From Cerrena zonata (lineage: Eukaryota; Basidiomycota; Agaricomycetes; Polyporales; Cerrenaceae), in contig JASBNA010000103.1 of NCBI GenBank assembly GCA_038087015.1, positions 33,391 to 97,390 of the forward strand: a DNA stretch of 64,000 nt, in the 5' to 3' direction. A program made the position numbers and the translations under genes. Below, one piece after another: positions 36,690 through 61,093 of the stretch; the stretch's first letter is position 1, and every line of letters begins with the position of its first letter. The notes beneath the pieces are model-generated. The model was given only the letters and a program-made list of their open reading frames with translations. It searched no databases and was not told where the DNA came from.

Positions 36690-39238
36690 TCATTTGATTG
36701 TCCGATATGAGTGCTCGTCTACAAACGGGTTTACATAGAAGGTTTCACATTCTTCTAAGACATTATCAGACGTCCAACTCCTATCAACAACCGGACCAAA
36801 CTTCGGAAAGAGCATGACACTCCGTTTTATGTTTTGCACAGGGATGACAGAAGCATGACGGCTTCCGTGTCGGTATTCACGACTAACTTTGTACATAAAG
36901 TGGTCTTGATGGGGCGTACGTGAAAATGGAGAGAACCATTCAACGTACGCTAAGTGACTCGGCCATTCGGTGTCCAATCCAAACGTATCCCTGCATGTTG
37001 AATCTGACAGGAGAAATATAGTGCGAATCTGGGCAACCTGGTAACCTAGAAGGACAAGAAAAATGAATGTTAGAGATATAAAATTTGCACGTTAGGGGTG
37101 TTATGATTACCTTTGACACCTATTATACCACCATCACCACGATCGACAAGAACGGTGTCAAACCGAGCGGACACAGCGCGTGTTGTCCTGCCCTGTAAGC
37201 TGACACTAGTACTTGCTGGCTTGGCGTGGGCAACATCTGTGAACGAGTATTCTCCATGTACATCGTATTGATCGGAAGCAGAAAAACGGATCTTATGGAA
37301 AACAGAGAGTGAACGCATCGGCAGGTTGATACTAGCAGCAGCAACATCGAGCCGTGCGCCGTGAAGAGATGTGTTCTTCCATTTAGCGATGAATATAGCC
37401 AATGCATTGCGGATGTCTTCGGCACCATAGTTAAGTGCTATGTCATCGAGTTCTACGCCGCGAGCCGATGGATTTCGTGTCATTTGAATAGACAGAGACG
37501 AGCTAGATAATGATGGGGTGCTAGCCTGAGTAGTGTTTGACAGTTGAGAGGTTCCAGTAAGACGCCATTTTATATATGCTGCGTGACTGGTCATCTTCTC
37601 AAGTCGTTCGAGCCAAATCGTCATCTGGGCAAATTCCTCTTTGTGGTTCGTGGCCTCGTAAGCTTCCTTCGCAAAGTCAATATGCAACCGCTCCGTGGTC
37701 TGTGTGCTGTAGTTGTCGGTTGTACCGAAGCGCATAATGAGCTGTTTGTAGTGACCGACATTGTGCAGCTTTGGTAGGTTGAATTGGGTTCGTATTCCGA
37801 GATCGATAAAGACTGATTTGTTGGTATGAAAGTTGCTGAGGGCTTCATCCATGTCGCTGAGGGTTCGCTTTGTATGTACCTTGTACTGCGCCAAATAGAA
37901 GAAGTCCAGCATGCTGCGAACAGCTCGAACCAATCGTACCGTGGATGCTCCATTAGGAAGCCGAAGGTCTACAATCAGCCCAAGAAGTACGCGGCACATA
38001 TCACGGTGTTCTTGGCCTGACACTCGAGATAGCGTCGAGATACCCTTCGTGAAAAGACGTGTCCCATGATTTGGGGGCATCCTTCGACATCGTGCATCAA
38101 TCTCATTTGCACCAAATGCAGAGATAAGCCATGCAACAAGATGTTTCACCAGTCCTTGGTAAAGCTGATGGAGAACATCGGGGGTGATTGATTGGTAGAT
38201 GTTCACGTAAGGAAGATCATACCAGAATGGATGATAGATGGGTTTAATGCCTGCATCAAGACATGCACGAGTGAATTCGGAGGGATCATCATCCATGGCA
38301 TCGAGGGCATCGATGATGGGGAGCAATGCTCGAGGTCCAAGTATCGTACCAGATCCAAGCTCGTCATGAGGAATAGGACATGTCGGACACTCCCCATTCT
38401 TCAGACATGATACGAGAATTTGTTCGGGATAATCGCCTGCAAAGATGGCGAAGATTGGGTGACATCGGCGAACAACGCCATCGCCAGACATCATAGCAAG
38501 ACCATCAACTCCAGCCGTCTTGAGGGGAGCGAGAACAAAACTCATGCACGTATGAAAGAGATTGGCAAGTGTCCGTCGACGGGATGTCACTGATGTAATT
38601 TGTGAGAGTCGAGTGGTGGGAAGATATCCTAGTAATATCTGAGCACGCCGAGAGGGTTTGCGTCGAATATCCTTTGGGATATTTCCAATTGTGAGATAAA
38701 TCGGATACGCTGTCTTGTTTCGAAATAGAGTCAATTGGGTTTTATCGGTGGAAATAATGACTGGAATTATCGTGGCTCCTTCGCGTTCATCTTCCAACTT
38801 TATCTGCATGATATTAGTATATGATGTATGAGAGATGATGTCAAGATCCATACCTGAGTACTCCACCACCAAGTCCCAGTATGCATCTCACTATATTCAC
38901 GGTTCACTTCATCATCGTCTGTGTAATGACGCTCTGGTGCAAAAACCAGAACAGGCGCGAACTCCGGGTCGCCAAATAATGACCGAATACATTGGATGAT
39001 ATCGCGGTAGTAAAGCTCAAATGCTTCACCTGCAGCCTCGACAACGACCTCTTTACGTTGAAAACGGGGCCGCCCAGGAAGGTGTTCATCGATGATTTGA
39101 TTCAATTCATTTGAGTTGCTGTATGAGAGACCAAGACGTTCGCGCACCTATCAACAATTAAATAATGCAATTAAAAATACAACGGTCGCTCATACATACC
39201 TTGTCAATCTTAAGAAATTCAGTAAAGGCCGTTGAACC
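36690..39238 (-). CDS. Plavaka-type DNA transposase, 5' end missing
   Basis: Catalyses cut-and-paste transposition; Plavaka is a basidiomycete relative of the CACTA group. Exons read from the right: about 39238-39200, 39147-38854, 38803-37111, 37045-36690, with introns of 50-65 bp, all in frame. Family signatures in order: LPGRPRFQRKEV, FGDPEFAPVLVFAPERHY, HTGTWWWSTQ, IIPVIISTDKTQLTLFRNK (first acidic residue), YPIYLTIGNIPKDIRRKPSR, GDGVVRRCHPIFAIFAGDYP (second Asp), ECPTC, TTERLHIDFAKEAYEATN (candidate Glu), LAYVEWFSPF, FPKFGPVVDRSWTSDNVLEE and YVNPF near the end. There are no stops over about 790 residues, so it is recent. The usual N-terminal zinc finger and linker exons are not found: similarity ends near 39238, where unrelated repetitive-looking sequence begins. 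The element is probably truncated or interrupted there. Confidence 0.88.
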
Positions 39239-40090
39239 TCAGCCCTTTCAATGACATTTTCCCATGTACAATGGTACAAGTAGGGTGCTTAATACCCATG
39301 TACCATGAGGTAGTAGGGCCCAGCTGGGTTTCCCAGTAGCGCCACTATACATGGAGTAGTTGGCCATCCTAAAGTAAGGTTCACACCGTCATATACAATG
39401 AGTAGGTGGGTCCTGCTACTGCATGAGGATATATACCAGGACACCATCTATGATGGACAGAGGGGGGAGATTTTTATAATTCCTTGAGCCAACCCACTGG
39501 TCGTGGAATGACTAGGTCAGCTAGCAAGATGACAGTCCCCACAGCAGATGATATGGTGGGCCATGCTCGTGAGATTGGTCCATATGAAATGGGCTGATGG
39601 ATCATCCTAACACCTGCGAACCCATCCATATGAGGTGGATTAGAGGGGTCTACCAGGGTGAATGGGCTGCTCTGTACCTTTATATCTGTAATGTTTGGTA
39701 TGGGTGGAGTACTGTATAAGAATGTTGAAATTATTATTGTCACATATCAGTCGTATGCATATGTAAACATGGCATAGTGGCAAAAATACAGCATGAATCA
39801 GATGCGACATCGAGGTAGGCAAGGTCTATCTTGCGATTGGATATGATTTCGAACATCGGAAAATGATATTCCAACCGTCAATATAGGTAGTAATATGGGG
39901 AGAATGATCCCAAGGTACTGCAGCAGGACAATTCAATTCCATCCCAGCCTACAGTTCGCTAGTCGGGTTCAATCTTCAGTCGGGTGGAACTGCATCGGAC
40001 GACAGTATACGTTCGACAACATGTCACCGGATGTGAAAGGTGGAGAGCGACACAATGTAGCTATGACACGAGCATGTTACTGGTAGACAG
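39239..40090. other. Unassigned repetitive-looking block
   Basis: Starts with two related 24 bp stretches (39260-39284 and 39295-39319, both CCCATGTACMATG.. ending GTAGGG) and many short palindromic pieces such as TGTAC-N4-GTACA. No coding capacity is seen. It interrupts the expected 5' end of the Plavaka gene and precedes the TCGG array, with a few TCGG cores already present at 39963, 39980 and 39995. It could be an inserted small element or the terminal region of one of the two transposons. Confidence 0.4.
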
Positions 40091-40115
40091 TCGACGAGAG
40101 CAGTGGGGGCGATAG

Positions 40116-40731
40116 TCGGGTACATCAGTCGGTCTGTACCACTTTGTCTAGTCGGGTACAAATATCGCGAGGTGACCTCGGATTGTAGCATCGGGTACTA
40201 CTACATGGTTGAATATGTCGTGTAATTCAGTCGGGGAAACGTATCTGAATTCGTCTTCGGCAACAAATGTCGGTCGGTCCAAGTTGACTCAAATTTCGGA
40301 CGACAGACTCGGACATTATGATATTGAGCTACCTTCGGATTAAATCTTCGGGATAGTCCAATGTGAGACGCTGTCGGATGATTAGCTCGGGAGATTACAT
40401 TTCGAACAGTTTTCGGATGAATTTCTCGGTCAACCACGACTGGGACAAATGTCGGATAGCAGACTCGGATCTTGGCGTTTAGAAGTCAAATTCGGATTGG
40501 TACTTCGGAACTGACCTTGATCATGAAAATTAGGATGGTTGAGTCGCGCGGATGACGGATTAGAATATTATCGGCTGTCGCTCTCGGTCTGTCTGAGTTC
40601 AAAGCAAAACTCGCGTAGCACACACGGATTGCTCAATATCGAGCAGAAGTCGGACAGTATATTCGGCCAGACTAACTTTGAGAGAACGCCGGCTAATTAA
40701 GTTGGGAGGAAGCATTTTGACTAGTTCTCGC
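40116..40731 (+). repeat. Phased TCGG array, alternating 13 and 26 bp (39-40 bp period)
   Basis: TCGG cores start at 40116, 40129, 40152, 40178, 40191, 40231, 40257, 40270, 40296, 40309, 40335, 40348, 40374, 40387, 40413, 40426, 40452, 40465, 40492, 40505, 40571, 40584, 40650 and 40663. One-mismatch cores fill the expected slots at 40165, 40218, 40531, 40544, 40611, 40624, 40689, 40702 and 40728. From 40218 on, steps alternate 13 and 26 (sometimes 27). The sequence between cores is essentially unrelated from unit to unit apart from a preference for TCGGAT at the first core. No open frame explains it, since 13 is not a multiple of three. It resembles an array of protein-binding half-sites, as found in subterminal regions of large DNA transposons. 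Confidence 0.85.
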
Positions 40732-40885
40732 CTCTATATCTCTGCTTGCCCTAGTTAATGGATAGCAGGCTCAAATGGTAGAATCTCGGATGTCAGTAGT
40801 ACGATCAGAGCTGGAGCGATGTTGACTTCAGGTCAACGGTCGGGCGATTGACGACCTGTCTCAAATTAGTCACCAGCTCAACCTG

Positions 40886-40942
40886 TCGCCCGACATACAT
40901 ATGCTCGCCCGACATACATGTGCTCGTCCGACATACGTACGC
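40886..40942 (+). repeat. Three tandem copies of a 19 bp unit
   Basis: Units 40886-40904, 40905-40923 and 40924-40942 read TCGCCCGACATACATATGC with few changes; the third has TCGTCCGA. Each starts with the element-wide 8-mer, and a complement copy (TCGGGCGA) lies just before at 40840. Non-coding, between the TCGG array and the first cargo gene. Confidence 0.9.
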
Positions 40943-41079
40943 TCGGGTTGGCTTTCCCCGTTACTCCTTTACTCATTTACCTGACATAAGGCCCTGTATG
41001 GTTATACCGCCCGTATCCGGCAGTATCCGGTAAGTGATCGGCGCGATTCTCCCATGACGTAGTGCACTAGTAGTGGGAT

Positions 41080-42190
41080 ATGAGTCATGACTGTATCAGG
41101 ATCAAGACCGCTAAGCTGCGCGGCAACGTTTCGAAGAATAAACCACCATCTCTTCACCATCCTCTCTATTACAATTCATCTCCGATCGACATGCAACGAA
41201 TCAAATCTGAGGCGGATCTAATTCGCGATAACAGGAGGACCACTTTCGAAACCTGGGCACTGGCGATGGTCCACCTCCACCGCACGGGATCCGTGTCTGC
41301 CCTGACATTCTTCGAATCCGTACTACCCATGGTGGTAAGTGTTCTCATGCTAGAATAATAACAACTAATCACACTACGAAAATCAGACTGAAGCGAACTT
41401 GAATCGCTTCAGAGACAGAGGCACGCAGATGGAAGTAGAGGAGGGGATGACGCTGCTGTGTGGACATGTGGAAGACATCTGGGTGGAGGACTACAGGCCA
41501 TACGCTGGTTGTTTGGCTCCCAACTTAGAAAACCGAACGTTGGAACAGCGTCGCGATTCTCGTTCTCCCGCCCCAGCTGGTGGCACCATGCGGATAGGCC
41601 CGCCGCGTCGCTTTGCAGAAAGACGACGATCGGCCGAGCGTGCGCGAATCGAACGCGAGGAAGACATTCAGTCCAAACGGCGAGCTCGCGGAGAACTACT
41701 GAGAGGACTTGCAAAACGAGCGACGATCGCATCCAACGACGAGGAAGATGAAGTCGGTACGTATTCTGATCCAGACTCCATAACGCGCACTTATATCGCC
41801 ATACCAGCGATCTCTAGAGGGCGACGTGCAATCTCATTCACCAAGAGTGGCTCGGGTCAGTCATCCCGACCAGGTGTTAGAGTTGCACGGTCCCATGAGC
41901 CGACTGCGTCCACATCTCACCAACCTCGTCCGGACCCTATGGAAGGCTCTTCATCACGAGCTGGACCATCGGACCCGATGCGGTTGGGAAGGTTCAGTCG
42001 GGATGCGTTACACAAGCAACTCGAAAAACAAGAGAGCAAGATTTTCCAGCTCGAACTAACCCGAATGGACTTGGATACCAAAGAGCATGCCACGCGGGAA
42101 AGTATCTCTAACATTCGATCTTACTTGCAGTTGAGCGATGAGGAACACGAGGTGAAACTTGAGGAGGAGACAGAGTGGGACAGCGAGTAA
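41080..42190 (+). CDS. Element-associated coiled-coil protein, paralogue A
   Basis: Two exons (41080-41334, 41387-42190) joined by a 52 bp intron give about 352 residues from the ATG at 41080. Not a family I can name. It has a conserved N-terminal module: a FETWALAMVHLHRTGSV helix, LPMVTEANLNRF across the intron, then EDIWVEDYRPYAGCLAP. A basic, Arg-rich middle and an acidic stretch follow, then a C-terminal coiled coil (FSRDALHKQLEKQESKIFQL onwards) ending acidic. Paralogues B (42812-44097) and C (61398-62455) share the module, the position of the first intron and the coiled coil (KRIEQQ.., KRLEQQ..). A is the most divergent. The Arg-rich segment and coiled coil suggest a self-associating, nucleic-acid-binding protein, which is inference. 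It is the first gene after the TCGG array and repeated 8-mers. Confidence 0.65.
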
Positions 42191-42811
42191 TTCTCTTGCG
42201 ACTGCTGTGGAAGGTATGTATCTTATCGATGGTCGCTCGCTGTCTCGTTCCGCTAACATCCGCTTACAGTCTTTCAAACGCTACAGATGCAGTCCCTCCC
42301 ACTACGCTAACTTCCGCCATTTTCTTGATAGATATTGACAGTAAACTCCCAATACATCTACAACTCTCCACACTTATGAACATTGGTGCCGCTTTAGCTT
42401 CTTGATCTTAATACTCATTTCTTGAATTGTAATAACAGTTGTACCGCTTATTTCTTGGATTCCACAGTCGTTGCTTGCATTGTATATACCTCCTCCAATA
42501 ATTCTTATACACCGCTTGTACTATTCCCTTACTGATACTATTATACATTGTTTACGTAGTCCTTGAAACGTATAGTCGCATGGAAATGGTTTCTACTTAA
42601 GCAAAGCTATCATTGGGACCCCGAATGACTGATTTATGATCACGTACGTATAGAAACACTTTAATTTAATATTGCCTTATTGATTCCAACAGGTCTGAGT
42701 AGCGGGACCCAGGGCCGGCCGGTAACTATAATATTGACCCGAACCTCAGTGGAAGCCAATCCCGAGATCGTGCCATCTACATATCCCTACATTCGCTTGA
42801 AGCTGAAACCA
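42191..42811. other. Spacer between paralogues A and B
   Basis: No gene seen. T-rich 3' flank of A followed by a short frame (42680-42811) that is open into the B gene and may hold its true 5' end after an acceptor TCCAACAG at 42692. Confidence 0.4.
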
Positions 42812-44097
42812 ATGTCACAAGACATTCCTCAAACTGACAGAGGCAAGCCTCAAGGTGGTTGGAAATCGACATTTACTCAATGGGCGAACACCATGTTGGA
42901 TCTCCACCGGTCAGGATCGTTGGAGACACAACAATGGTTTGTGCGTGTTCTCCCAATACTGGTATGCTTTTCGTTCTCGAATCATCTAGTAGATCGGAGC
43001 CGAAGATCTGATTTTACCCCATAGACCGACGCAAACCTTACTGAAATGCGCAGTAAAGGAACATCCAAGGATGTAGACGGCGGTCTGGAAGTGTTGCGAA
43101 GATACGTATCCTCGAACTGGAGCGAGGATTGGAGATCGTTTGCTGGTGTGTTGGCACCAGTCGATAGTTCGCGGAACGGTCAACAGATACCCTCGTCTCG
43201 CCCTATGGCTCAAACCGGAGATGCTGGTCTGTTGTCCCAATCTCGGGGAGCTCGAAGACGAAAGTCGGCCGGTGACATTCAAGTCGACTCACCCTATACC
43301 GGCCCTGTAACACGAAAGCGGGCTCGTGAGCAGTCGGGCGTAGGAGCGGCCGAGGATATCTCACCATCAAGAGCCCCTCCTCCACCGAAGCGAGTCACTT
43401 CATCAGCTTCATCTTCAGCAGGGAGGAGAATGACCGTGGCGGTGGAGATCCCAAAGTACAAGCAACCCACAAGTACGCATATGATTTGGTCTCATTTCAT
43501 TGCCTCCGACTTACCACTGCAGGCTCTCCGGTTCTTCGCATAGGCCCTCCAAGTCGCGTTATTTCGACAGCGCTGAACGAGATCTCACCGTATCTGTCGA
43601 TCATGCCAAAGCAACAACTCCATTCCTCCAAGTCGGCGGAACGTCAACCAGGTCCATACAATCTTACCCCGAGTAATTTCATGGCTCCCGACTTCGGGCC
43701 TATGTCTTCAGTCCCTCATTCGCAGCACAGTGCAACCCAACAGCCTCTCTCCCATGCTCTACAAGTACCTCTGCAAGCACCTCGTCTCACAGCATCCTCA
43801 TCCGCACCTGCAGCGCTTTCACACACCCTAAATCGGTCGAATGAGCTGGCTGCATTCAGTCGGGATGTATTGCAGAAGCGAATCGAGCAGCAACAGCACG
43901 AACTCCTCCAGCTACGGGTTCAACAATTAGAGATAGAGGTAGAGCAGCGGGTGAGGAGGGAGAGTATCGCTCAGATCGAGGAATACCTTCAACACAGCTC
44001 ACAAACCCCACAGAATGAAGTTTTCGGAGAGTCTAACCCGTTTTTGCAAGATAACATAAAGTCTCAAGGAAGAGGAAAGAAAACGGTAAGAAAGTAG
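42812..44097 (+). CDS. Element-associated coiled-coil protein, paralogue B
   Basis: Exons 42812-42961, 43025-43472 and 43523-44097 join in frame (introns 63 and 50 bp) and give about 390 residues; the frame is open upstream to 42680, so the start is uncertain. N-terminal module: WKSTFTQWANTMLDLHRSGS, RVLPILTDANLTEMRSKG across the intron, then YVSSNWSEDWRSFAGVLAPV. A basic RRRKS and TRKRAR segment follows, then a proline-rich linker and a C-terminal coiled coil with alternating Gln/Leu/Glu. It is nearly identical at DNA level to paralogue C over the first exon (about nine bases in ten), so B and C are recent copies in opposite orientation about 19 kb apart. Exon 1 shares the LHRSGS/LHRTGS motif with A. 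No assigned function. Confidence 0.65.
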
Positions 44098-44709
44098 GGT
44101 AGCTCCTTCATGATATATTCTATGTCAGGTAGTTCAGATTCGCTCAATGTGTAGAGACAGTCTAATGTAATCTATTCTCCAATGTATTACAGGGGTATAA
44201 CCAAGAAAAGTATTCCTGATGCGTATGAGAGAGTCAAAGGAACATAGCGATTTTGTAGTCGCCAAGTAATAGAGAATATGAGATCGCGGCATGAACACAA
44301 TCCATAACACCAATGTAAGCTGGACCAAGGGATGCGAAAGAATGAAATCAGTCATTCAATATACATCTTCATATGCGAAAGCGGATAGAATATAGCGATG
44401 ATGATAAGATCGGTAAAACGAGACAAATCACAAAGGACGCAGGCGGTCGGACGAAGTTGGCGTTCGGGATGAAGATGAATTCTGAGCGGGTTGTTTTCTG
44501 GTATAATTAGAGAGCCTATTCAGACCGTGCTCTTGGCCGAGGAATCTGCAAACTTGTTTGGTGTGACCCGAGAGGAAAACTTGCCTATACCGACGACTTA
44601 CTCGTGTTTAAAAACCATTGCCAGTCATTATCTTTAGGATCTGTAGTGTCCCCAATTCCCTCATGTTAAAGGCATAGTTCACATTCTATTTGACGTATAA
44701 TACATTAAA
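44098..44709. other. Spacer between convergent genes
   Basis: About 0.6 kb between the end of paralogue B and the end of the SPFxF gene on the other strand. Only short, unsupported frames. Probably 3' untranslated regions. Confidence 0.5.
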
Positions 44710-47038
44710 TTACATTCTCAGGTCCTTATAAGTATCAAGACGAGCCAAGACAGAATAGTTAAACTGTTCGAAGGTGCGATCCTGAAGCAAAGACAGGCGA
44801 TCCTCAAGGTCTTCTGAGAGTGCAATCGTGTTGGAGATTGCTTCACTATGACTGGTAGCCCGAGGTAAGTCCAACAACGAATTGGAGCGACGCCGTTTGA
44901 GGGTGCAGTATGGGATTTCAAAATCCTCCTGCAATGCTCCAGGATTAACGCTGAAGCAATGCAACATACTTAGGGAGTGAATACCTGCGACGCCTTGAAG
45001 ATAATCGGACCATAATGTAGAGTCGGGTCGCTTTACAACTTTGTTAGACTAGCAAAAAGTGTTTGAGATCGGCTTAACTTACTGGGGTTATTCTCCTATC
45101 GGCCGACGTACTGTCACGTAGGATATATTCCTCATCCTGCAAGAGTGAGATTCATCACATAAATGCTTGTGCTGTAATGAAATAACCCTTACAAAAAGCT
45201 TTCCCTTCCCCTTATCCTCAGAGTTAACGTTCCGACCGGATTCGGGATGCTAAAATGATGTAAGTTATAAATTATAGTGGTGGTTGAGTCATGAATAATC
45301 ATTACCGCATTATCCTCCTCATCTTGCCTACCAACACCTGACAAGTCTCGTTGGCGAAGGTATTCGAGGTACCTACGGAATGACATTTGGTGTTGCTCGA
45401 TATCCCTGCTGGATACCTTTGAAAGCAGAGGCTCCGGAGCATTCACGTGTGAGGAAGGATAGCGCTTTTCAGGGAACATATGCTTGTACCGCTGGTGCCA
45501 GATCTCAATTGCATGGATCCGGAGATCTTCGTCCGATAAAACATTCTCAGGCTCAGGGGATGCCCGAAGTGTAGAAGATGGGTGTCCAGAAATGAAACTG
45601 AATCCGACGTCGCCTACTGAGGCAGCACGGCGTCCGTGGATGTTGTTCCCAGTCGCAAAAAGGAATGGACTCGGATTGCGATCACTGCTGTCTTCATCTG
45701 CCACCTGGTTGTCTAAGTTGGAAGAATGTTCGAGGGGATCATCGAATTCATGACCCCGGTGTTGGCCCGAGAGATTAAATGGACTCGGAGGGTGACTATC
45801 AGCATCGTCGTCCGCGCCTTTATCCGAGAAGGAGAATGGGCTTGCTGGAGGTTCCTCACTATCCTTGCCCGAGTGGTCGTCACTATCCTCGCCCGAGTGG
45901 TCGTCACTATCCTCGCCCGAGCAGTGACCAAAGCGAAATGGGCTTGGGGGAGTATTGTCGCTTTCCCCGCCCAAGTTATGAGTGAAGCGAAATGGGCTTG
46001 GAGGGGTATCATCGCTTTCCTCAGCCGACTGGTTGCCAGGGAAACGGAATGGGCTTTGAGGGATATTGTCGCTCTCATCCTCAGAGTGCTGGGAAGAGAA
46101 ATGGAATGGGCTTGGGAGGCTGTCATCGCTATCATCGCCTGAGTCTTGGTCAGCGGAAATTGACTGGGTTGGGGGATTAACCTCGTTGTCAAAAGATATA
46201 ATGTCCAAGTTCACCGGGCTAGCAGGACCACTGCTCTCGGCGTCGGAATGTTGTGGTGTAAACGTAAATGGGCTAGGTTGACCATCTTCACTGGAGTCAC
46301 CCGAGTCGCGATCGATGAGGTCATTCAAGGGGCTTGGAGGTCTGACCTGTTGGAGACTGAGGGGAGTCAACGGATGTGGGAGAGACTTTTGTAATGAGAA
46401 GTAAATTAGTCTCGCTGGAACTGCTTTACATCATTAGGAACTCACGAAGGAAGCTGGAGACCGGTCTCCGCCTGAAGATGCAGCAATATTGCGAAATTTG
46501 AATCGAGATGAAGGAGGGGTGGATGATCTAGATGCCGTCTCTTCTCTGTCGGGTACACTTCCGCTATGGAAAATAGCGACTTCATGTGAAGTGAGTGTTC
46601 CGGAAGTAGGGAGAGGGTGTGCATCGAAGAGAAATGGGGATTGCTGATGGCTACATTTTAAAGGATAGCGTGAGCTTATGGTGAAAGGCTCTGTTTATTC
46701 CAGATTGGTAACCTACTCATCGGTATCCTCAGAGTCATCAGACTCTACAACATCAGCTACAGTCATGAACGTGAGTCTTTTCGCATTATTGTAACACGGA
46801 ACAACTGACCGCTTGGTGGGATTGGTCCAACATTGGATCCACTAGGCTGTCGAGGGAGAATTCGGTCACCTAATGTTTCCCTGTCTCCCACTTTGAACAC
46901 AGTGCCCAACTTATGACGCTGCGCACTGGCCAGGAGTTCTTCTTCAAGCCGAGCCGAATACGTTACCGGTTGTCGTTTGTGTTTGACTGGTGGGGGAGGT
47001 TGTGCGGGCCCTTTCTTGTCATGAGATCGAGTTCGCAT
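44710..47038 (-). CDS. Ser/Asp-rich protein with repeated SPFxF motifs
   Basis: Eight exons (47038-46810, 46756-46717, 46650-46446, 46385-45306, 45249-45193, 45136-45083, 45048-44985, 44936-44710) join in frame and give about 651 residues. The N-terminus is basic (MRTRSHDKKG, then KHKRQP). The central exon 4 holds about ten units, each an acidic Ser/Asp run followed by PPSPFRF or a close variant (PSPFTF, PSPFHF, QSPFRF, ASPFSF, PSPFNL, PSPFLF), 20-35 residues apart; a first SPFLF sits in exon 3. A globular part follows (IEIWHQRYKHMFPEKRYP, a motif I cannot place), then a coiled-coil tail. Repeated SPF flanked by Asp/Ser looks like an array of short docking or phosphorylation motifs in a disordered scaffold. 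This is inference; I know no family with this design. Two internal 8-residue repeats (DDHSGEDS) carry the element 8-mer 24 bp apart. Confidence 0.65.
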
Positions 47039-47226
47039 CGTGGTGCAAGGTAGAAACGCAAGCAGGAAGTGTACTGATCTTAGCGATAGCCAAATGTAGT
47101 CAGATAGGGGGATGATTCTGATTGGCTGACCGTGATCGGCAGGTAATTTGACCGCTCACACTTTCCTAGCTACCGCCATCTGAAATACTCTAGTTTCTCT
47201 CTTATACCAGTTTTTAACCTTTAGAA
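47039..47226. promoter_or_regulatory. Short divergent promoter region
   Basis: 188 bp separate the ATG of the SPFxF gene (minus) from the ATG at 47227 (plus). The plus side ends in a CT-rich leader (TAGTTTCTCTCTTATACC). The arrangement suggests that the two cargo genes are expressed together. Confidence 0.5.
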
Positions 47227-50200
47227 ATGTCTATCCGCAATCATCAAGGCTTGAATATGGAAGGCGGAAGCCATTGGAGGGGAGCAGAAGTCGCGTTGTG
47301 GAGAGCAAGCTTCGTTGCGAGGGAAGCTATTTTACTTGCTCCTGACAACATGTCAAAGAAAGAGGCCGACTCTTACTTTAAAGCCCTGGTAGTATTCCTT
47401 GTAGGTTTATAGATGCTAACAGTAACGAGTGATACTAATACCTGCTTAGAAATCGCAATATGCTTCTGCTATCAGTCCGGACGTAACTGATGGACGTCCC
47501 ATCCGAGTGCGGCTTCCCTATATCGTTGTGGCCTGTTTCCACGAACACAACAGGGGACTAGCTCGGAATGATACAGCCCGAAAGGTCGACTATCTGAACG
47601 TATTCGAAGTTAAAGGCGAGGTGTTGAGTAGCACTAAGAACATTTTAGTCGGGCCCCAATGTCTCGGGTGTTTTGATGACGTTATTCGTGCAGAGGACGC
47701 CTTCTGGTTGAGGCTCGGTAAGCGTTCTACATTCAACCAGTCTGCTCGTTGCTTATGTTGTGGACAGTCGAAAAATTCAACACCCGCAGAAAGAACAATG
47801 GTGGCCAAGAACTTGTATTTTCTACCAACGTACATCCGTACACACGTGCCACCGCGTGGACATATCTCTACAGTAAAGAAGATCTCTTGCAGCGTTATGC
47901 CTACATACCTGGATCACCTGCAGGGTGGGCTATCGTAGAAGATATTCATCTTGTGTGGGACCAGCCGGAGATGGTATTCAGAGCCGAAGACGCGATGGAG
48001 GTAGACAACGTGAACTCAGAAAGTCAAGAGGAGGGCAAGGAGGTACAACCCGATCTACGAAGTATGATCCTCTTTTCAGAATTAGGGTGTGTGGCTAATA
48101 TTATGTTAGAAAAACGTCCTCGTGCTTCAACTGCTAGTGAGAGGGATCAGCCATCCGTACCACAGGCAGACCTGGTAGGCGTTTCCGATTCTCCCCAGGG
48201 TAAACCAGCCATGAAGCGAGTTCGTCTCGCTCCGTCGGACGCCCAAGTTGAAGAGGTTCCCGAACCCTCATCCAGTCGAGTGACGCTGGACCACCAGAAG
48301 TATCAATCTACGGGCTCCTATGACCAGGTGCAGACCTCTCCTGCAGACCAAGAAGCCTTACCAGGGAATAAAGAAGCGCAGAGCGATCTGGAGTTGGACA
48401 ACGAGGACGATACAGAGCCATTGCATAAGGCGGATCATCAAGATCGACTAGATGAAGATCCTGAAGATAGCAAGGGTGTTGTCGAGGAACAAGGTAAAAT
48501 ATCCCAATCCTTGTTTGTTACGTTATTGCTTATTGGTCGCCTTGACCACCCTAACAGGGACAGACGATGATGAAGTGGTAGAGATACAGCCGCCGAAGGT
48601 GGAGGAGAAGAAGATGAAGAAGAAGAAGACGAAGAAGTCGAAAGCAATTATCGAGGATGAGGTGGAAGAGATAGAGCCGCCGAAGGAAAAGAGGAACTTA
48701 TTCCTCCGCGAAGATGACGAAGTTGAAGACGTAGAGCACCTCCATGTAAGCAAAGAAGTTTATGGATATTGACCCTTCTTTCTCATTTGATTCTCATTTG
48801 ATTTGTACCAGTTGGAAGGAGGGCCGAATCACAATTGGGATGAGAATAGCCTCAGTCAGTGCTACTCTACACCATGCGACGCTAACCAGGCTCTGATTCC
48901 CCTTGTTATAGCCGCCTCGTTGGCTTTCCTGGAACAGAATCCCTTCCTTAAGTCGCTTGTCGTTACTCAAATCTCGGTAAGTCCTAACCAAACACATAGG
49001 ATCTATTTCTCACCAGTCTGTAGCCTGTAGCCTGTCGCAATTGTGTCTCTGCACAACAACCCTGCATTGTCGCCTTGGCGTATTTTCATGGATGCGTGCT
49101 TTGTAAAACACGGTCTCAAGGGTGTTCCTTGTGTCCTAAGGTCGGTAAGGGTAACATGAAGGATGCTGGCTGGTGTCGCTTTATTACCATCATTCACCAT
49201 GCTGCCGCGGTCCTAGGCCTCGAGTCCGAAAAAGGACCTATTGAAGTCCTCCCCGACTACACTGGGGTTGTATTGCCCCCATTCCCTAAGAGACTCGCGC
49301 CGCTCTTGAAGCGTACCTTATCGGCGGAGAAAATTCAGGAAATTTGGAAGGATGCCTTGAGCTTCATCAAAGACCCCAATTACTACGCTGTCCCTCATTC
49401 GATGCTCAAAGCACTTAAGGACGATCGGCCGACTCGAGCACGGTGGCCGAAGCTCGGACCTAACCAAGAAGTGAGGCGCAGACTGACGGTAATATATGCG
49501 AATATCAAAACTGGACTCCTGCCACGGATCTGGGCAACAGATTACCATGATGGGTTCAGACTTACAGGCCCAAGTACCTCTCTCTTGCCAATACAGATGT
49601 CGGCCAGTAGTACTGCCAAGGAGAAAGGAAAGGCGAAGGCAATCCCTGTTCCGACAGCAAAGGGGAAGGGGAAAGCGAAAGAAATCGCAAAAGCCCCACC
49701 GGTGAAGTCCAAGGCAGGAAAGCAGGTCGCCACATCAAGCAAACCAGCCGCGTCCAAGACACACAAGCTGACACCAGTGCCATCTCACACCGAAGAGGAT
49801 GAAGGTATGTACTATTTCGTCCGATCCGGTCAGGTGTTGGTGTTGGTTCCAGTACTAAATTCGGGCCACCAATGTAGAGGAGGCAATGACCCTTGAGGAA
49901 CGCATGATGCTGGCGGCAACAGCAGGTCCATCGAATGCAGCTGCTGACCCGACTGATGCTGACTTGATAGATGTCGGATACCAATCGTCATCCCTTCCCT
50001 CGCCCGGCAACCTCATTGCGACTCTGGCAAAAGAAGAGGGGCAATCAGGACAAGGCGCCGGCGGATCCCGAGCAAGTTCAAGTTCGGGTTCCTCAGATAC
50101 ATGGCTTGCGGCATTTTATAAGGTGGGAGTCCTCCCCACTGCTAGATACATGTCTCTAACTATCGGAGAACGCTATCAAAGCCATTGGTTGAAAATATCC

Positions 50201-51115
50201 GTCATTCACTAGAGACACTCAATGCAAACTTCAATCGGGAAACAGCTCATGACGAGCGAAGCCGCCAACAGGTCCAAATAGTCTGCGACAATGTAGAGAA
50301 GCTTGTCGCCGGATGGGAAAAGAATCGGAAGACCATGAAGGGCCGGTTTGACGAACTAAAGGAGGAAGTCAAGCAGCTGTTTGGCGAACTTGAATGTGCC
50401 TTGATTATCGGCAAAACGAATACGCAGCTCCTGAAAGCCTTGTCGGTAAAGGTCGATGGTATATCTGTATCATTGGAGGTCATCAAGCAGCAGATTGCCC
50501 GTAATACACCCCCAACAACAGCGGTTCTGTCCGAAGACCAAGTCACGAGTGTCGCCCGAAGAATCGAGGAGATGGTCATTTCGAGCATCAGACAAGAGAT
50601 GCTTCCATTGCAACAAATCGCAAAGGATCTTGAGGAAAGACAGAGTATCGGTCAGCACAGTTACTCCTCTCAACAGTCTCATGACGGTGCTTCGGCAAGC
50701 CAAGTGCAGACACCCGACAAGGGTAGCCTCTCGGACTCCCGCGAAGTGGTCGTCTCTCACATTTCATCCAACAAAGGTCACGTTCAAGTTGACACTCCCG
50801 TAATCAGTTCCACACGGCGGCCCCTTGGAGCTCTAGTGCAAGATGAAGAAATAGAGAGAGATTTGTCGGATGCACATGCTCCTGCATTGCAGGTGCAAGA
50901 TGTTGATGTTGATGGACTTCGGGCGAGTGCTGACGCGAACCTCACGTTACCGGAGGATGAGGAAGCTCATGATCCCTCTTCAACGGAACCAAATGCCAAC
51001 CCGGACATTGTGATGGTACGCATTTTGTTAATTTGCGAATGTTCTAGTTTAACACTCACCGATGTAGAAGGAAGGTGAATCCGGCGAAAGTGGTGATGAC
51101 ACCGCTTCCGTCTGA
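47227..51115 (+). CDS. Large cysteine-cluster and coiled-coil cargo protein
   Basis: Nine exons (47227-47388, 47450-47717, 47768-48493, 48558-48745, 48812-48976, 49024-49804, 49878-50122, 50182-51015, 51068-51115) join in frame and give about 1,140 residues; a further in-frame 51 bp intron near 48062-48112 would create KKRPRAS. In order: an N-terminal domain (WRGAEVALWRASFVARE, later YAYIPGSPAGWAIVEDI), a long acidic and Lys-rich region (KKKKTKKSK), then a cysteine cluster C-x2-C-x7-C-x11-C-x2-C-x6-C-x2-C starting ACRNCVS and ending CSLCP at about 49030-49140. Spacing of this kind recalls fungal zinc-cluster DNA-binding modules, whose known members contact CGG triplets. A coiled coil and Ser/Gln-rich tail follow (ENIRHSLETLNANFNRETAH onwards). 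A role as DNA-binding protein of the element is inference. Confidence 0.65.
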
Positions 51116-51328
51116 CGTATGGTGGAGTTGTATGAGAACTTGGTGTAAGTTGAAACCTCCGTAATCTGTCGATCTTCCTGGCTTTGTCCGCTTTGCGACA
51201 TGAATTTTACATCTCGCCCGATATCATGTACCTTTGTTATTACCCGACTTCCTGCTACCAATACAATTCATGCTATTCAAGTCTGCTTGCAAGTCAACGA
51301 TTCTTTCTATAAAACACATAGTATTGCA
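51116..51328. other. Convergent 3' ends
   Basis: 213 bp between the stop codons of two convergent genes. Contains one exact copy of TCGCCCGA at 51214. Confidence 0.6.
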
Positions 51329-54156
51329 CTACTTCCTATGGCCTCGCCTTGACTGGGGCTTGGATGTTCGTTTTGTGGGTGATTTCCCACCCCCAACGTC
51401 TAGGACAACTCGTTTCGTCGGGGCACTCTCATCAGGGAGCTCGCCTGCAATTCGCTTGCCGTTCCTGAAGATCTCCCCTCCCTTGGTATATACCGCTCGA
51501 CCCTTGTCTTTTAACCGTCCACTCTGCCGAGAACTCTCTTCCACGGTATTGGAATTAACAGCATAGGGAAGAGCTTGTTGATCTGCTTGACTACGTCCTT
51601 TTGATGGTCGTGTGGGTAACACCACTGGGGGATCAAAGGTGCGCGACAATGCATCTGGCCGTGGTTTGGATGGCTTCGGGATCCGTCTTGGTGGGGGCAC
51701 AATGGCATCCGACTCCGCTTCTTGGGAGGCTGCATCTTTTGGATCGGTCGTTGTCGTGGATGTTGGGACTTGAGTTGAATTCTTGTCAGATGCGGTGGCT
51801 TGATATTCTCTACTTCGCTTCGGTGCCTAAATGGTTTGATATTTTCATTGTGGCTAATGTAGATATGAAAGATTTCTCACCTTTAATTTCTTCGCGGTTG
51901 GTTGCTTGGTTGCTTGCTGTCCAGATGTTCTCAGCTCGCCCGATGCGTGACCTGTCAGAGGACATCTGAGCAGTATCTTTCTGTATGGGTAATATATTCC
52001 TTACCTGTGGATCCTTTATCAAACATCTTTAAAACTGTCGTTAGCAGTTTGAGGAGCTTGTCTTCGGTTGCGAGGGTTAGACTTGATCCCTGCGCATAGT
52101 CTGGAATCTCTACCGGCTCAGCATCCTCAGGGTCACGAAGAGAAAATTGCACGTCATGAATATCCCGAAGGATCAGCCCTGATGTTAGTAGAAGGTGCTC
52201 TACATGGGGCCCTGAGTTAGCTAAGTCCTGAATTTTCTTTTCCCATAGTTTGATGTAGCTTGCCACAACGCCGCTGACAGATTTATCGCCCGATCGCTCT
52301 TCAGCTTCATCGCCCGATGGATCTCCAGCTTCATCGCCCGATTCGTGTACATGTTCTGGAAGCCACCGAGTTCGGCTTGACCACGTCGCCCATCCTGAGG
52401 AAAATCGATCTCCAGGTGGCTTACGTGCCCGCGATTCTTGCTATAAGTCCACATGTTAGATAAGTAGAAAAGGGTTATAGGATGCTTTACCTGGGACATA
52501 ACAAGCAAGGACAAAAGCTCCTGATAGGACGAATGTTGAGACAGAGATTTGAGAAATGCTGTTCTATCCTCCCACTCGCAAGAGACCGACGCTGGAGAAA
52601 GATCTTCAACAAATGTATCGACCTCTTCAATGTCCGACCTGTCCGATCCATTATCGTCCGAGTCCCATCCCTCCAGCGCCTTGTCAATCTCTATCTCCTC
52701 AAATTCAGATTCACCATCGTCCGAGTCCGAACTTGCGGCCTTCCCTTTCCCCTTCTTGGCGGATTTCGTGCGTTTCTTCTCGGTATTGTTGGATTTGGAT
52801 TTCTCCTGAGTTTTCTCTTGAGATTTCCATTCAAAGACCTTGATCGGGTGGCCTTGATTCTTGAGGTCTTGTCGAGCCAGGAGGTGGAGGATCCATGCTT
52901 TCAACATGGATTTCTCCATATCTGTAGACTTTTCCATCTTGAAATCACTGGTAATCGCGTCTCGTGGTGGCAGATATTGAGCTTCCACGTATGCTGAGAT
53001 ATTCTTGTTTATCGTTTTGTAGGGTGGCCGTTTCTCACCCGACGCTCCCTGCGATCGGGCTGATTATTTATTTGGTATCAGTATTGATGGTAGGAGATCC
53101 TATCGGATAGAATACAAACCCCAAAGAATTCTGAGGTACTCTCCAAACATTCTCCTCCAGTTATCGATGCTTGAATGAGTACTCCAACTAGGCAGCACTG
53201 GGTCGCCGGCCGAATCGAATCTTAGGACGTACTCTGACTTCTTGCTGGCCACTTTGAGGGGAGAGATTTCGCTCGGGCCTTTAACAAAGCCAACATACCC
53301 CTCCGCTTTCCATTTGAGCGACGTTGAGTCATCAAGCGACCTTAAGAATTTTGGGCCATTGTCGTCTTCGTGCCTACATCGATGCAAAGGTTCGGGTCAG
53401 TTCACCAAGACTTGTCGGCTCAATCACTTACACAGAAACCAGCTTCCTTCCTTCGATGCCTTCTCTTACCGCTATCGCAATTATTCTGGTGTTGAACATC
53501 TTAGCAGTGTCATTGATAACTTTCTTGAACTGCGACTGAAAGTTCTTGTTTGCAAAGCTACAGTAAAGATATTGAGCTTCAAGAAGCTAAGTATCGTAGG
53601 AATTTATACGCGATCTGGGTCTCCTTCGCCGCTGTCCCCTCATTCTTCTCCTTCGCCATCTTTTCATAGACTCTTTTCTCCGCAATGCTCAGTTTTTCCC
53701 ACTCCTTCTTCTCTGTCTTGTTCATGGTACTGAGCCAGAAACGATGAGAGGCATCCTCAGTTCCCAGTGCGGCCACAACCTGGGGTCGGATAAGAGATTC
53801 CCAGTTCTTATGGTGAAACTCCTTCCGAGCCGTGACTCGAATAGGCTTCGCGACCCGCTTTTTCTTGATCGACTTGTTCGATTTGTAGCGGAACCAAGCG
53901 TTCAAAGACTATCGTACTGAATTCAGGCAGGGGTCACTTTAAATCGAACAAGTGCGACACCTACTTGATTTATTGCATCAGCTTGATCGGTACCAAGCTC
54001 AAACTTTTCAGTGAGATCGTCCTGGGCAGTCTTGATCACTTTCTCGCATTCACCAGCGCTATCCTCGGTGTACAATGCGTCGATGTACGTTTCAAGGTAG
54101 TCCTCCAGAAACTCGCTTTGGACTTGTGTGAAAGTATAGCGAGGTTGCTTGGGCAT
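51329..54156 (-). CDS. Homeodomain/HMG-like element-associated protein
   Basis: Eight exons (54156-53965, 53908-53610, 53557-53432, 53373-53120, 53059-52491, 52440-52005, 51951-51881, 51826-51329) join in frame and give about 814 residues. The N-terminus has a homeodomain-like pattern: YTFTQVQSEFLEDYLETYID, then SLNAWFRYKSNKSIKKK like a recognition helix. Next comes an HMG-box-like segment (ASHRFWLSTMNKTEKKEWEK, then RVYEKMAKEKN). A middle domain (MFNTRIIAIAVREGIEGRKL, then VLPSWSTHSSIDNWRRM), an acidic Ser/Asp region, three GDEA/GDPS-like repeats of eight residues, and a basic tail with SRRGHRK follow. Proteins with such an N-terminus occur beside KDZ transposons in other mushrooms, to my recollection. 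DNA binding is inferred from the patterns. It is divergent from the TET/JBP gene. The ATG at 54156 was preferred because a TATATA lies about 80 bp before it. Confidence 0.65.
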
Positions 54157-54634
54157 GGTGATAGTGACTTGGAGAGAGGCGTTTCTACCTGAGAATGTAA
54201 GGGTAGAGGGCCCCCGGAGGGGCCCCAGGCGGTATATATGTCCCTGATCCGTTATCAAGACCCATCGACCATGGAGACGGGGATCACCCGAAAGCTACTT
54301 TGCTGCCTTCGCCTGAGGCCTAAGTCGCGGATAGAAAGTGTTGCTCATAAGAATTTGTCCCTATTTACTTTCAAAGGACACAATGTATCCTCAGGTATAG
54401 TCTCCTTTGCAGACCTCAAGAAAGTAAGACAGTCGTTACTTCCATTACCTTGGTGCGATCACTCTCGCCGATGTTCCAGCGTCTAAGTATTCCCGATGTG
54501 GTGTTGACAACAGCCGCCTACCGCTGAAGCCTGAGATCAATATGTACGCATGTGCTGGCAGACTGCCAGCACGAGATCTGTTGTAGGTGTTCTCCGAGTC
54601 CCATTCCTCCTTATTCCTCATTTCATTATTCTCA
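54157..54634. promoter_or_regulatory. Divergent promoter with a perfect GC hairpin
   Basis: 478 bp between the homeodomain/HMG-like gene (minus) and the TET/JBP gene (plus). It holds TATATA at 54233-54238, placed for the minus gene, and a perfect inverted repeat at 54208-54225, GGGCCCC-CGGA-GGGGCCC. The hairpin lies between the TATA box and the minus ATG, so it would be in that leader RNA. Confidence 0.55.
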
Positions 54635-55928
54635 ATGGATCTCAACGACTATTCCCATACTATCGCAAAGTTTATGCATGAGCAATTTCGATACTGTCTG
54701 GCTAACACTACATCACACCCTGACGTCCCAAAAAAACCAACACCGCCTGTGTCTATGGGGGAGGAATTACTACGGGCTTGCCTGTCCGTTATCGAGATGT
54801 GCATCACAGCATTTTGCAACCCAAGTAAGGGCGACATTACGTCCTCCGAAAAATGCTAACAAGGGGGTTCATTATTTAGTATATGTCAATTGGGATTATG
54901 AGGAATATTGTGCCGAATGCCGCGGTGTAAAAGTGGCACGTGGCGATAATTCTGCCAAAGAGGGTAAGCTCCGTGAGAAATGGGGACCGAAAACCCGAGG
55001 GACCATGAGGATTGATACTCCTAGAACGGTTGTAGATCGGAAAGGTATCATAATGACCTGGATCCTGCCCGAAGTCATTCCTCAAAAATACCAAGTGCGT
55101 TGTGTTTCTTATATGTAAATATGCTATACTAATCTCGTGCGAAGGAGGAAGTGTATTTAGCCACAAAGTCACTTGAAGGGACTCTTGCATCAAATCTTCG
55201 GAGCGCTCGAGATAGCACGTCTTGGAGATCATCTCCTGGACTGTTCAACCCAGATTCAGACTATATCCGAAGCGGGTTTGCAAATCTCTCTCCTGCCTGG
55301 TATATGTCTGGCCGCTCAGTGAGATTTTCCTTCTCAGCATTGAACGCTAAATCTGAGCTCATTTTAGCACAAATCGGACGAACCTCGTACGACTCCTGTC
55401 TTAAGGCAATCAATAGGAAGACTATTCCTTCACACAGCACGTGACGCATTTGCAATTATGTCGGGCGTCTTGTTTATTGTACACCCAGAGCAGTATCAGA
55501 TGGCCAGGGCTATACATATGAAGATGAGAGGAAGAGGTTGCTGTGCCGATGCTATCCGTAACTGGCCCTCTGTCCAATCAGCGCTTTCTATCATTTCCAA
55601 CCGGGAGACTCCCTTTCATCGGGACGATCAAAGCAGAATGAGTTGGTATGATATACTTATGTCTATTGGGCCATATGATAAAGCACCATTTTATCTCTCT
55701 CCTATTGGGATCCGGGTCGATAACCGTGCAGGAACAATCTGTGCATTTAGCGGTGCTGCCTTCCGGCACGGAGTTCGAAAATGTAGCCAGTCGCGCATAT
55801 CCCTCGCTTGGTATCTCAGAGAAAATATCAGAGAGGGAGAAGCTGTTGAGCCGGCGAATGCGATGAGTCAGGCTGTGTACAGAGAGCATATTGGTAGCGC
55901 CAGCCACAAAGTTTGCCTTTCGATGTAG
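54635..55928 (+). CDS. TET/JBP-type 2-oxoglutarate/Fe(II) dioxygenase
   Basis: TET/JBP enzymes oxidise 5-methylcytosine or thymine in DNA, using Fe(II) and 2-oxoglutarate. Four exons (54635-54824, 54880-55094, 55145-55318, 55368-55928) join in frame and give about 379 residues. The N-terminal part is fungal-specific, with a WDYEEYCAEC segment. The C-terminal catalytic part shows VLFIVHPEQY, SALSIISNRETPFHRDDQSR with the iron ligands His and Asp of HxD, WYDILMSIGPYDKAPFYL, GIRVDNRAGTICAFSG, AFRHGVRK with the distal iron-binding His, and RISLAWYLRENI with the candidate 2-oxoglutarate-binding Arg. All key residues are present, so it is probably active. It ends 62 bp before the KDZ transposase ATG on the same strand, the arrangement known from other Agaricomycetes. 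It may demethylate or mark the element DNA to aid expression or transposition (inference). Confidence 0.85.
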
Positions 55929-55990
55929 ACTACGTACCTGGAACTTGTACTCTACGGTACTACATTGGGTCCTTGTAAACTCTCTTTATC

Positions 55991-60043: not shown

Positions 60044-60400
60044 TTAGTTGCACTCTGTACTTTTTTGTTATGCTAGTAAGAATTTTGCTTTCACTTTTTA
60101 CTCTGTACATCGCTCGATGTTTCGCTTGTTATGCCAGATTGCATCGGTCGGATCAAGAATATATGTATTTCGAGCTTGACATAGTCCTGCTATCTTATAG
60201 AAAATTAATCCTGGAAAATGGACTTTCAGGACAAAACAGTCGGGTATCAGGGTAAAGAAATTGACATGGACCCGTGGCAGCGATCTTATTCGCCCGAGAG
60301 GCTCCAGTCGCCCGAGAAGTTCCAGGCGCCCGAAACTAAAAAGGTGACGTGGAGCATGAGGGATACGTAGTCTTGAAGAATCACACGCTATCACGATCAG
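60044..60400. other. 3' flank of the KDZ transposase
   Basis: No gene. It carries two exact TCGCCCGA copies (60290, 60308) and a variant at 60326, about 18 bp apart, in the same orientation as the 19 bp repeats at the left end. Confidence 0.6.
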
Positions 60401-61093
60401 ATGTCGATCGTATCATCTTGCTTCAATACCACCATGTCAAGCCCACTGTCATCAGTGGATGATATAATAGTACCAGAGACGGCGGAGCGCATCTGTCTTG
60501 CCCGATTTGCGTATCGTCTTTGGAGACTTGATACTGCGGCACGCTCCTTCCCCTATCACTTGGAAAACGAGAAATTGTTCGAGATGACGTTGCGTTGGGA
60601 GATTGGCCTTGTTTTGGAACTGGTATGTTTTTAACGTGAGTGTTGTATTCTTTACTAATCCTACTCGCAGGAGGATTTTCGTTATGTCATGGCGGACGCA
60701 TGCATGCTGGGTTTGATGACCACCGAGCTCAGCAAGGAAATAGCCAAAAGGCTAGCCTGGGTGGATATCCTCTCCACGTTTCCGCCTGTCATTCGCTGGA
60801 ATAAAATCCCTCGGGGTAAAGATGACTCACCACCGCCTGTCCCTTGCCTGCCATGGATGTTTGGTTATGCTTCGAACTATCTTTCCACCCTTCTGCATTG
60901 GTGGGAAGAGCCCGAAACGGATGTGGGGAAGCCAGCATGGTGGTTTCAGCCGGTTAAGGAGGTGCGTATAAGTGATTATCTTCCTCATTTTTGCGCTTAC
61001 ACCTCTGAAAGAAATGGCTGTATGCAGTGCGAGTACCGCGAGACCTTCTCGGGCGGTATGTTGGTGCGATCTCGGATTCGGCAGAGGTCTTGA
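60401..61093 (+). CDS. Small unknown cargo protein
   Basis: Three exons (60401-60622, 60671-60961, 61028-61093) with introns of 48 and 66 bp give about 192 residues. I do not recognise the family. It is helical with several Trp-containing stretches: LARFAYRLWRLDTAARSFPY, FEMTLRWEIGLVLELEDFRY across the first intron, RLAWVDILSTFPPVIRWNKI, and LSTLLHWWEEPE. The C-terminal 22 residues are basic (VRSRIRQRS). No signal peptide or membrane segment. It lies between the KDZ transposase and the inverted paralogue C, so it probably belongs to the element. An alternative start at the second Met (MSSPL) is possible. Confidence 0.6.

What the first reader, a model, noticed from the sequence alone, without database searches (positions are those of the whole stretch)
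40116..40731. Non-coding array of TCGG cores spaced alternately 13 and 26 bp
Twenty-four exact TCGG cores, plus nine near-matches in the expected slots, lie in about 600 bp where chance predicts two or three. Their steps alternate 13 and 26-27 bp, so each 39-40 bp unit is TCGG-N9-TCGG-N22. Between cores the units do not resemble each other, so only core and spacing are kept. That points to selection on paired DNA contacts, such as a protein binding direct half-sites, rather than to a young satellite. The position fits a subterminal transposase- or regulator-binding region of the adjacent KDZ element, or the 5' region of the Plavaka element.
Basis: partly seen in the sequence, partly recalled or inferred. 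Interest (0 to 1): 0.88.

Follow-up and report, generated by a model that had tools for sequence, protein, structure and literature searches.

The report
Protein-docking array at transposon ends
A fungal jumping gene that carries its own DNA-demethylation enzyme has, near its ends, rows of a short CG-containing signal spaced 13 letters apart, most likely docking sites for one of its own proteins.

Summary
The array is real: 25 TCGG in 616 bp (2.9 expected) on a 13-bp lattice, far above shuffles. It is not part of Plavaka. It lies 0.88-1.45 kb inside the left end of a ~29-kb TET/JBP-encoding Kyakuja-like (KDZ) transposon starting at 39240, beside the 5' part of a Plavaka transposase gene. Relatives in the same genome gave the test. 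The element's right end carries the mirror-image array; a diverged relative, E2 (62% CxC2 identity), has arrays at both ends although blastn finds no match there outside the terminal repeats; a third, E3, has a CGG lattice at one of two ends. Genome-wide, 34 of 40 strict-pattern hits fall in six arrays, all at these ends. Best explanation: subterminal docking arrays for an element-encoded protein reading CGG every 13 bp, for end recognition and perhaps to direct TET. Candidate readers: CxC2-KDZ, or a conserved third gene with a Zn2Cys6-like cysteine pattern that no profile search confirms. CpG decay in one copy spares the left end (0/210 vs 92/2281) but not the right. Binding untested.

The parts
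39240..64000 (+). Left ~24.8 kb of a TET/JBP-encoding Kyakuja-like (KDZ) transposon, E1; cut by the end of contig C103 = window end
   Evidence: 99% copy on C73 starts at 39240; right end found on C73 at 152086 and on C31 at 12242
39240..39360 (+). Left imperfect terminal inverted repeat, begins CAGCCC
   Evidence: positions 5-121 match the inverted right end on C73 at 73%; E2 ends 86% and 78%
40116..40731 (+). TCGG/CGG array on a 13-bp lattice, 39-bp units; on-lattice CGG from 40117 to 40690
40886..40945 (+). 3.2 copies of a 19-bp repeat with TCGCCCGA; C73 has two more copies
   Evidence: 38-bp indel at 40885
49024..49893 (+). Open exon of the third element gene: CX2CX6CX9CX2CX6C near its start, candidate reader of the array
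   Evidence: no significant Pfam match
55368..55925 (+). Tet_JBP (PF12851) dioxygenase exon
   Evidence: E=6.4e-12
55979..57631 (+). CxC2 (PF18803) cysteine-cluster exon of the KDZ gene, alternative reader
   Evidence: E=6.7e-24
58083..58571 (+). KDZ transposase (PF18758) exon
   Evidence: E=8.3e-28
37073..39147 (-). Plavaka transposase exons (37073-38887 and 38803-39147), host gene flanking the insertion; not part of the array
   Evidence: PF18759 E=1.6e-85 and 3.7e-26

Best explanation
The array is a subterminal docking region of a TET/JBP-encoding Kyakuja-like (KDZ) transposon. Shown by sequence: CGG cores lie on a 13-bp lattice 0.7-1.7 kb inside both ends of E1, both ends of E2 and one end of E3, always reading the same way relative to the nearest end, while the sequence around the cores differs between elements. 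Inferred: an element-encoded zinc-cluster protein contacts one CGG per 13 bp and coats the array as a multimer. Candidates are the CxC2 part of the KDZ transposase and the conserved third gene with a Zn2Cys6-like cysteine pattern. Inferred further: the coated arrays mark the element's own ends for pairing and excision, as TNPA does on En/Spm, and may bring the element's TET enzyme to these CpG-bearing sites.
For: Lattice far beyond shuffles at 5 of 6 distinct ends. Same orientation and similar distance from the end. E1 and E2 have no blastn match (E<=1e-3) in E1 128-1764 nor around the right arrays, so the lattice outlives sequence similarity. 34 of 40 genome-wide strict-pattern hits are in six arrays at these ends; the reversed control pattern gives 5 in all. 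In E1 left, cores are conserved and spacers nearly random. At the five array-bearing ends the array segment is CpG-rich (observed/expected 1.06-1.38) next to CpG-poor outer 800 bp (0.41-0.73). A third gene with six invariant cysteines in 14 of 14 aligned relatives accompanies Tet_JBP matches in 22 of 26 genome matches. En/Spm TNPA binding to subterminal repeats and its link to methylation: passages of PMC2613891 and PMC4219821.
Against: No binding data. One of six distinct ends (E3 left) has no lattice. More distant elements differ: family F has 121-bp-period terminal repeats, C41 a 54-bp satellite, neither with a CGG-13 lattice. The third protein matches no zinc-cluster profile significantly (PF00172 best E=0.15, below cut-off, for one E2 fragment; none for the window's protein). 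The sparing of CpG at the left end is not seen at the right end. E1 right and E2 right units still resemble each other, so part of the regularity there is simply tandem duplication.
Confidence: 0.7

Rival explanations
1. Promoter-side regulatory array: sites upstream of the first element gene, bound by an element or host regulator to control transcription, with no role in end recognition.
For: The left array lies ~0.7 kb upstream of the first long open frame at 41369; CpG sparing in the C73 copy covers 39240-41200 as a block, as a promoter would show, and is absent at the right end.
Against: The same array, inverted, sits at a similar distance from the right end in E1 and E2, and at the right end alone in E3; symmetry with the ends is not expected of a promoter for one gene. 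Both roles can coexist, as for TNPA.
Confidence: 0.15
2. Decayed satellite: leftover of neutral tandem duplication of a 39-bp unit.
For: E1 right shows a 78-bp higher-order unit and E2 right clearly similar units. Subterminal satellites of other units occur in C41 and F.
Against: In E1 left the cores stay at 0.93 while spacers fall to 0.51 with 0.42 expected by chance; E1 and E2 keep core and spacing without alignable sequence; E3 keeps 10-11 CGG on the lattice with little else.
Confidence: 0.08
3. Host-side target: the array is where the host's methylation or silencing machinery recognises the element.
For: CpG-bearing cores; the element body shows methyl-CpG-type decay in the C73 copy (92 of 107 C-to-T changes at CpG).
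Against: A target harmful to the element should be lost, not maintained at both ends of diverged elements; the left array region shows no CpG change in C73 (0 of 94).
Confidence: 0.05
4. Part of the Plavaka element.
For: Plavaka transposase exons adjoin it in the window.
Against: The C73 copy has the array and no match to the window's sequence left of 39240.
Confidence: 0.01

Closest known systems
TET+ Kyakuja DNA transposons (Kojima 2025, PMC12730594; abstract, sections 3.2.1 and 4.2 and search passages seen)
   Same: KDZ transposase with a TET/JBP gene, 5'-CA..TG-3' termini, 7-bp target duplication where one could be seen
   Different: That paper says Kyakuja lacks TIRs; here imperfect ~120-bp TIRs exist. 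The word subterminal does not occur in it and no zinc or cysteine-cluster third protein is mentioned
En/Spm (CACTA) subterminal repeats bound by TNPA (passages of PMC2613891, PMC4219821)
   Same: Short GC-containing motifs repeated near both ends, bound by a second element protein, sensitive to methylation, diverging between families
   Different: Other superfamily; strict 13-bp lattice in one orientation per end; element also carries TET; binding here untested
VANDAL/VANC anti-silencing arrays in Arabidopsis (passages of PMC5735166, PMC10398659)
   Same: Noncoding tandem arrays of a short motif, element-specific, evolving fast, in an element that counters methylation
   Different: No VANC homologue was looked for; here a TET enzyme is encoded; arrays are concentrated near the ends and lattice-spaced
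Zn2Cys6 regulators and their CGG sites, e.g. Pho7 (passages of PMC5559640)
   Same: CGG triplets as the usual recognition unit, Pho7 reading TCG(G/C)(A/T); cysteine spacing of the element's third protein
   Different: Third protein is not a significant PF00172 match and lacks the usual basic loop (my reading); its DNA binding is unknown

Membership tests
TET+ Kyakuja (KDZ) transposon | KDZ-superfamily transposase with associated cysteine cluster | tested here: met
   PF18758 E=8.3e-28, CxC2 E=6.7e-24
TET+ Kyakuja (KDZ) transposon | TET/JBP gene inside the element | tested here: met
   PF12851 E=6.4e-12 between the two ends
TET+ Kyakuja (KDZ) transposon | 5'-CA..TG-3' termini | tested here: met
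   CAGCCC..GGTGTG in E1, E2, E3
TET+ Kyakuja (KDZ) transposon | 7-bp target site duplication | tested here: inconclusive
   Perfect GCCTGTC in 1 of 4 two-ended copies (E3 on C1); none seen for C37, C73, C53; C73 left and C31 right flanks share TCACACA
TET+ Kyakuja (KDZ) transposon | no terminal inverted repeats (as stated for two Laccaria families) | tested here: not met
   E1 TIR 118 bp at 73%, E3 131 bp at 66%; so 'Kyakuja-like' is used
TET+ Kyakuja (KDZ) transposon | placement in the Kyakuja branch of a transposase tree | not tested
   No tree built
En/Spm-type subterminal binding array | motif repeated near both ends | tested here: met
   E1 and E2 both ends; E3 one of two
En/Spm-type subterminal binding array | bound by an element-encoded protein and needed in cis | not testable with these tools
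   needs binding and excision assays
Zn2Cys6 protein (third gene) | six cysteines CX2CX6CX5-12CX2CX6-8C (signature recalled) | tested here: met
   invariant in 14 of 14 aligned; of 16 relatives held, one more (C6 fragment) shows it and one (C48) does not align there
Zn2Cys6 protein (third gene) | PF00172 above curated cut-off or profile match to a solved Zn2Cys6 chain | tested here: not met
   best 12.7 bits against 21 for one E2 fragment; LEU3 chain E=1.5 over 16 residues, behind viral chains; none
VANC-type anti-silencing array | arrays and surroundings kept hypomethylated by an element protein | tested here: inconclusive
   mutation proxy only: left end 0/210 vs 92/2281 CpG, P=0.0004; right array 3/86 and right terminus 2/32 not spared

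The most novel reading that the evidence does not exclude
TET-encoding Kyakuja-like elements carry a three-part, sequence-specific anti-silencing system: a zinc-cluster protein reads CGG every 13 bp in terminal arrays and delivers the element's TET dioxygenase there. It would be a fungal analogue of VANDAL/VANC that works by enzymatic oxidation of methylcytosine, with the array motif changing from family to family.
Probability: 0.25. Interest if true: 0.87.

Novelty: new variant of a known kind. Interest (0 to 1): 0.66.

Why it matters
Why DNA transposons carry TET enzymes is unsettled; Kojima 2025 speculates that the mushroom type acts without target specificity. CpG-bearing, lattice-spaced arrays at the ends of a TET element, together with a conserved third gene of zinc-cluster type, make a targeted alternative directly testable. 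The lattice also gives a similarity-independent way to recognise the ends of these very large elements.

Tried and rejected
Plavaka origin: rejected by the C73 copy. Coding repeat: the array has stops in all six frames. The 54-bp repeat on the left side of the C41 relative is open over 383 codons in one frame and was dropped as evidence; the C41 right-side 54-bp satellite (39 copies, 2.1 kb) has no CGG-13 lattice, and C41's right end was not located. Family F (C73:182699-200413) has 121-bp-period repeats at both ends and few CGG; I first took it as lacking the third gene, but tblastn found a weak relative without the strict motif (E=1.3e-7), so it is no clean negative control. Near-miss cores on the lattice show mixed changes, no clear C-to-T bias. 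Protein database search with the third-gene exon: 3112 candidates, none at E<=0.001. Structure prediction of a 60-residue piece of it alone: mean pLDDT 49.6, unusable, so no fold search was run. Two relatives (C48, C6 pieces) were fetched but left out of A3.

Full report
OBSERVATION. The array exists as described. There are 25 TCGG in 40116-40731 against 2.9 expected. In the region 600-1600 bp from the element's end, TCGG forms 49 pairs at multiples of 13 bp (13-78); the maximum was 4 in 1000 dinucleotide shuffles and 14 in 2000 random placements of the same number of sites, and 13 is the best of periods 7-30. CCGA is absent from that region. The array is noncoding and Tandem Repeats Finder does not report it.

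WHERE IT LIES. The window is the end of contig C103 of a 55.5-Mb genome. A 99% copy on C73 starts at 39240. Just left of it, on the minus strand, lie Plavaka transposase exons, the one with the start of the domain at 38803-39147; a further exon-like stretch runs up to the junction (my reading), so the element probably interrupts that gene. The element encodes Tet_JBP, CxC2 and KDZ domains. On C73 it ends with an inverted repeat at 152086, so it is about 28.9 kb there. Contig C31 begins inside a copy 99.6% identical to the window over 10.4 kb and gives its right end. Termini are CAGCCC...GGTGTG in E1, E2 and E3. Of four copies with both ends in hand, one (E3 on C1) has a perfect 7-bp duplication, GCCTGTC; C37, C73 and C53 show none. 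The C73 left flank and the C31 right flank share TCACACA, as if one insertion had been split by exchange or by the assembly. Seven-bp duplications and CA..TG termini fit TET+ Kyakuja (PMC12730594, section 3.2.1 read), but that paper reports no TIRs and these elements have imperfect ones; no tree was built. That the host is an agaricomycete is an inference from element type.

COMPARATIVE TEST. E1's right end carries the mirror array. In C73 it starts about 2.3 kb from the end, with two copies of a ~715-bp inserted repeat between; in C31, which lacks these, on-lattice CGG run from 0.96 to 1.66 kb. E2 (C53:206096-251752; CxC2 62%, KDZ 75% identical) has arrays at both ends (0.86-1.33 and 0.68-1.22 kb), though blastn (E<=1e-3) finds nothing between E1 and E2 from E1 128 to 1764 or around the right arrays. 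E3 (C37:315454-341443, copy on C1; CxC2 46-60% by exon, KDZ 66-67%) has at its right end CGG sites with steps 26, 13, 52, 39, 13, 25, 78, 39, 13, 13, mostly preceded by G rather than T: 16 lattice pairs in each copy, shuffle maximum 10 in 1000, and 0 of 2000 random placements reach it. E3's left end, tested with an inserted repeat cut out, has none. So 5 of 6 distinct ends have the lattice, all reading the same way. Genome-wide the strict pattern TCGG-N22-TCGG-N9-TCGG gives 40 hits: 34 in six arrays (left ends on C103, C73, C53; right ends on C73, C31, C53) and 6 singly on other contigs; the reversed control gives 5. In a sliding scan of six held stretches the listed top CGG-13 scores lie at these ends; C41 (maximum 5) and the C53 285-295 kb stretch (maximum 1) have none.

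WHAT IS CONSERVED. In E1 left, core columns average 0.93 and spacers 0.51 over ten hand-anchored units, 0.42 being chance. In E1 right and E2, units share more sequence. What recurs across elements is CGG, a 13-bp step and a 39-bp period, with two boxes per 39 bp in E1 and up to three in E2.

CANDIDATE READERS. One is the CxC2-KDZ transposase. The other is a third gene whose exon 49024-49893 holds CX2CX6CX9CX2CX6C. The six cysteines are invariant in 14 of 14 aligned relatives. Of 26 genome matches to the E2 version of this protein, 22 lie 5.5-9.8 kb from a Tet_JBP match by my count; the other four are two in E2, where one search lists no Tet_JBP, and two on C7. The spacing fits Zn2Cys6, whose members typically recognise CGG triplets, Pho7 reading TCG(G/C)(A/T) (PMC5559640 passages). 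Against this, no profile search supports membership and the single-sequence model was uninformative. I give the two candidates about even odds. Both follow the same phylogeny, so array and reader cannot be matched by covariation with the data here.

METHYLATION PROXY. Over 23,905 positions aligned between window and C73, 92 of 107 C-to-T changes (either strand, window to C73) are at CpG: 3.7% of 2491 CpG positions against 0.17% of 8973 other C/G. I read this as methyl-CpG decay of the C73 copy. In the left 2 kb 0 of 210 CpG positions changed against 92 of 2281 elsewhere (P=0.0004); array alone 0 of 94 (P=0.049). Non-CpG C-to-T is also low there (1 of 715), so gene conversion is not excluded. 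The right array (3 of 86) and right terminus (2 of 32) are not spared. At the five array-bearing ends the outer 800 bp are CpG-poor (0.41-0.73) and the 800-1500 bp segment is CpG-rich (1.06-1.38); the arrayless E3 left end also rises, 0.83 to 1.03. This fits sites kept against CpG loss; it does not prove demethylation.

MECHANISM AND NOVELTY. Best supported: a subterminal docking array for an element-encoded protein, working like the TNPA sites of En/Spm (passages) and possibly like VANC targets (passages). Shown: array, near-symmetry, recurrence without sequence similarity, confinement of the strict pattern to these elements in this genome. Inferred: binding, a multimer on a 13-bp step, a role in excision, TET delivery. 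Literature: searches for KDZ/Plavaka, Kyakuja/Zisupton, Zisupton with subterminal (2 papers), Kyakuja with tandem repeats (2 papers) and KDZ with subterminal (0 papers) showed no description of such arrays in the listings; I saw passages of PMC12730594, PMC12810828, PMC9297572 and PMC12387193 and did not open the rest. Most subscription journals are outside that library.

Noticed in passing
window 39995-60308: Dispersed octamer TCGCCCGA/TCGGGCGA: 19 in the element part of the window, 0 in the 39.2 kb outside; TCGNNCGA 38 against 5.5 expected inside, 10 against 8.4 outside. Enriched in E2 as TCGGGCGA (8) plus one TCGCCCGA. Some sites are tandem, some in coding exons; it contains the TCGG core.
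   Followed up: partly
window 60266-60271; C73 159115-159828; C37:316002-316718: A ~715-bp inserted repeat with strong internal inverted similarity: three copies in E1 on C73 (absent at the window site, where alignments overlap by 6 bp), one in the C37 E3 copy and several in the C1 copy.
   Followed up: partly
window 42850-43171 and 62094-62414: 84.5% inverted repeat inside the element, with a second piece 43242-43399 / 61935-62092.
   Followed up: no
window 53648-64000 and C31:1-10380: Contig C31 starts inside the same element at 99.6% identity; C73 left and C31 right flanks share TCACACA, suggesting exchange between copies or an assembly switch.
   Followed up: partly
C73:182699-200413 (family F): Another TET-KDZ element with 121-bp-period repeats within the first ~1 kb of both ends: a different terminal repeat architecture.
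   Followed up: partly
C41:262021-264131 (L025:21-2131): 39 copies of a 54-bp unit with internal inverted symmetry, on the far side of the KDZ gene in a TET-KDZ element.
   Followed up: partly
window 45192-46430: Minus-strand open frame with in-frame 24- and 57-bp tandem repeats.
   Followed up: no
window 18001-24000: Strong strand asymmetry (AT skew 0.23-0.33, GC skew 0.13-0.25) with purine-rich repeats.
   Followed up: no
window 34374-36071: Long minus-strand frame with a weak F-box-like match (E=1.5e-4, below cut-off) next to the Plavaka transposase.
   Followed up: no
genome G000: 53 Tet_JBP and 141 KDZ exon-level matches in 55.5 Mb: a large population of TET-KDZ elements.
   Followed up: partly
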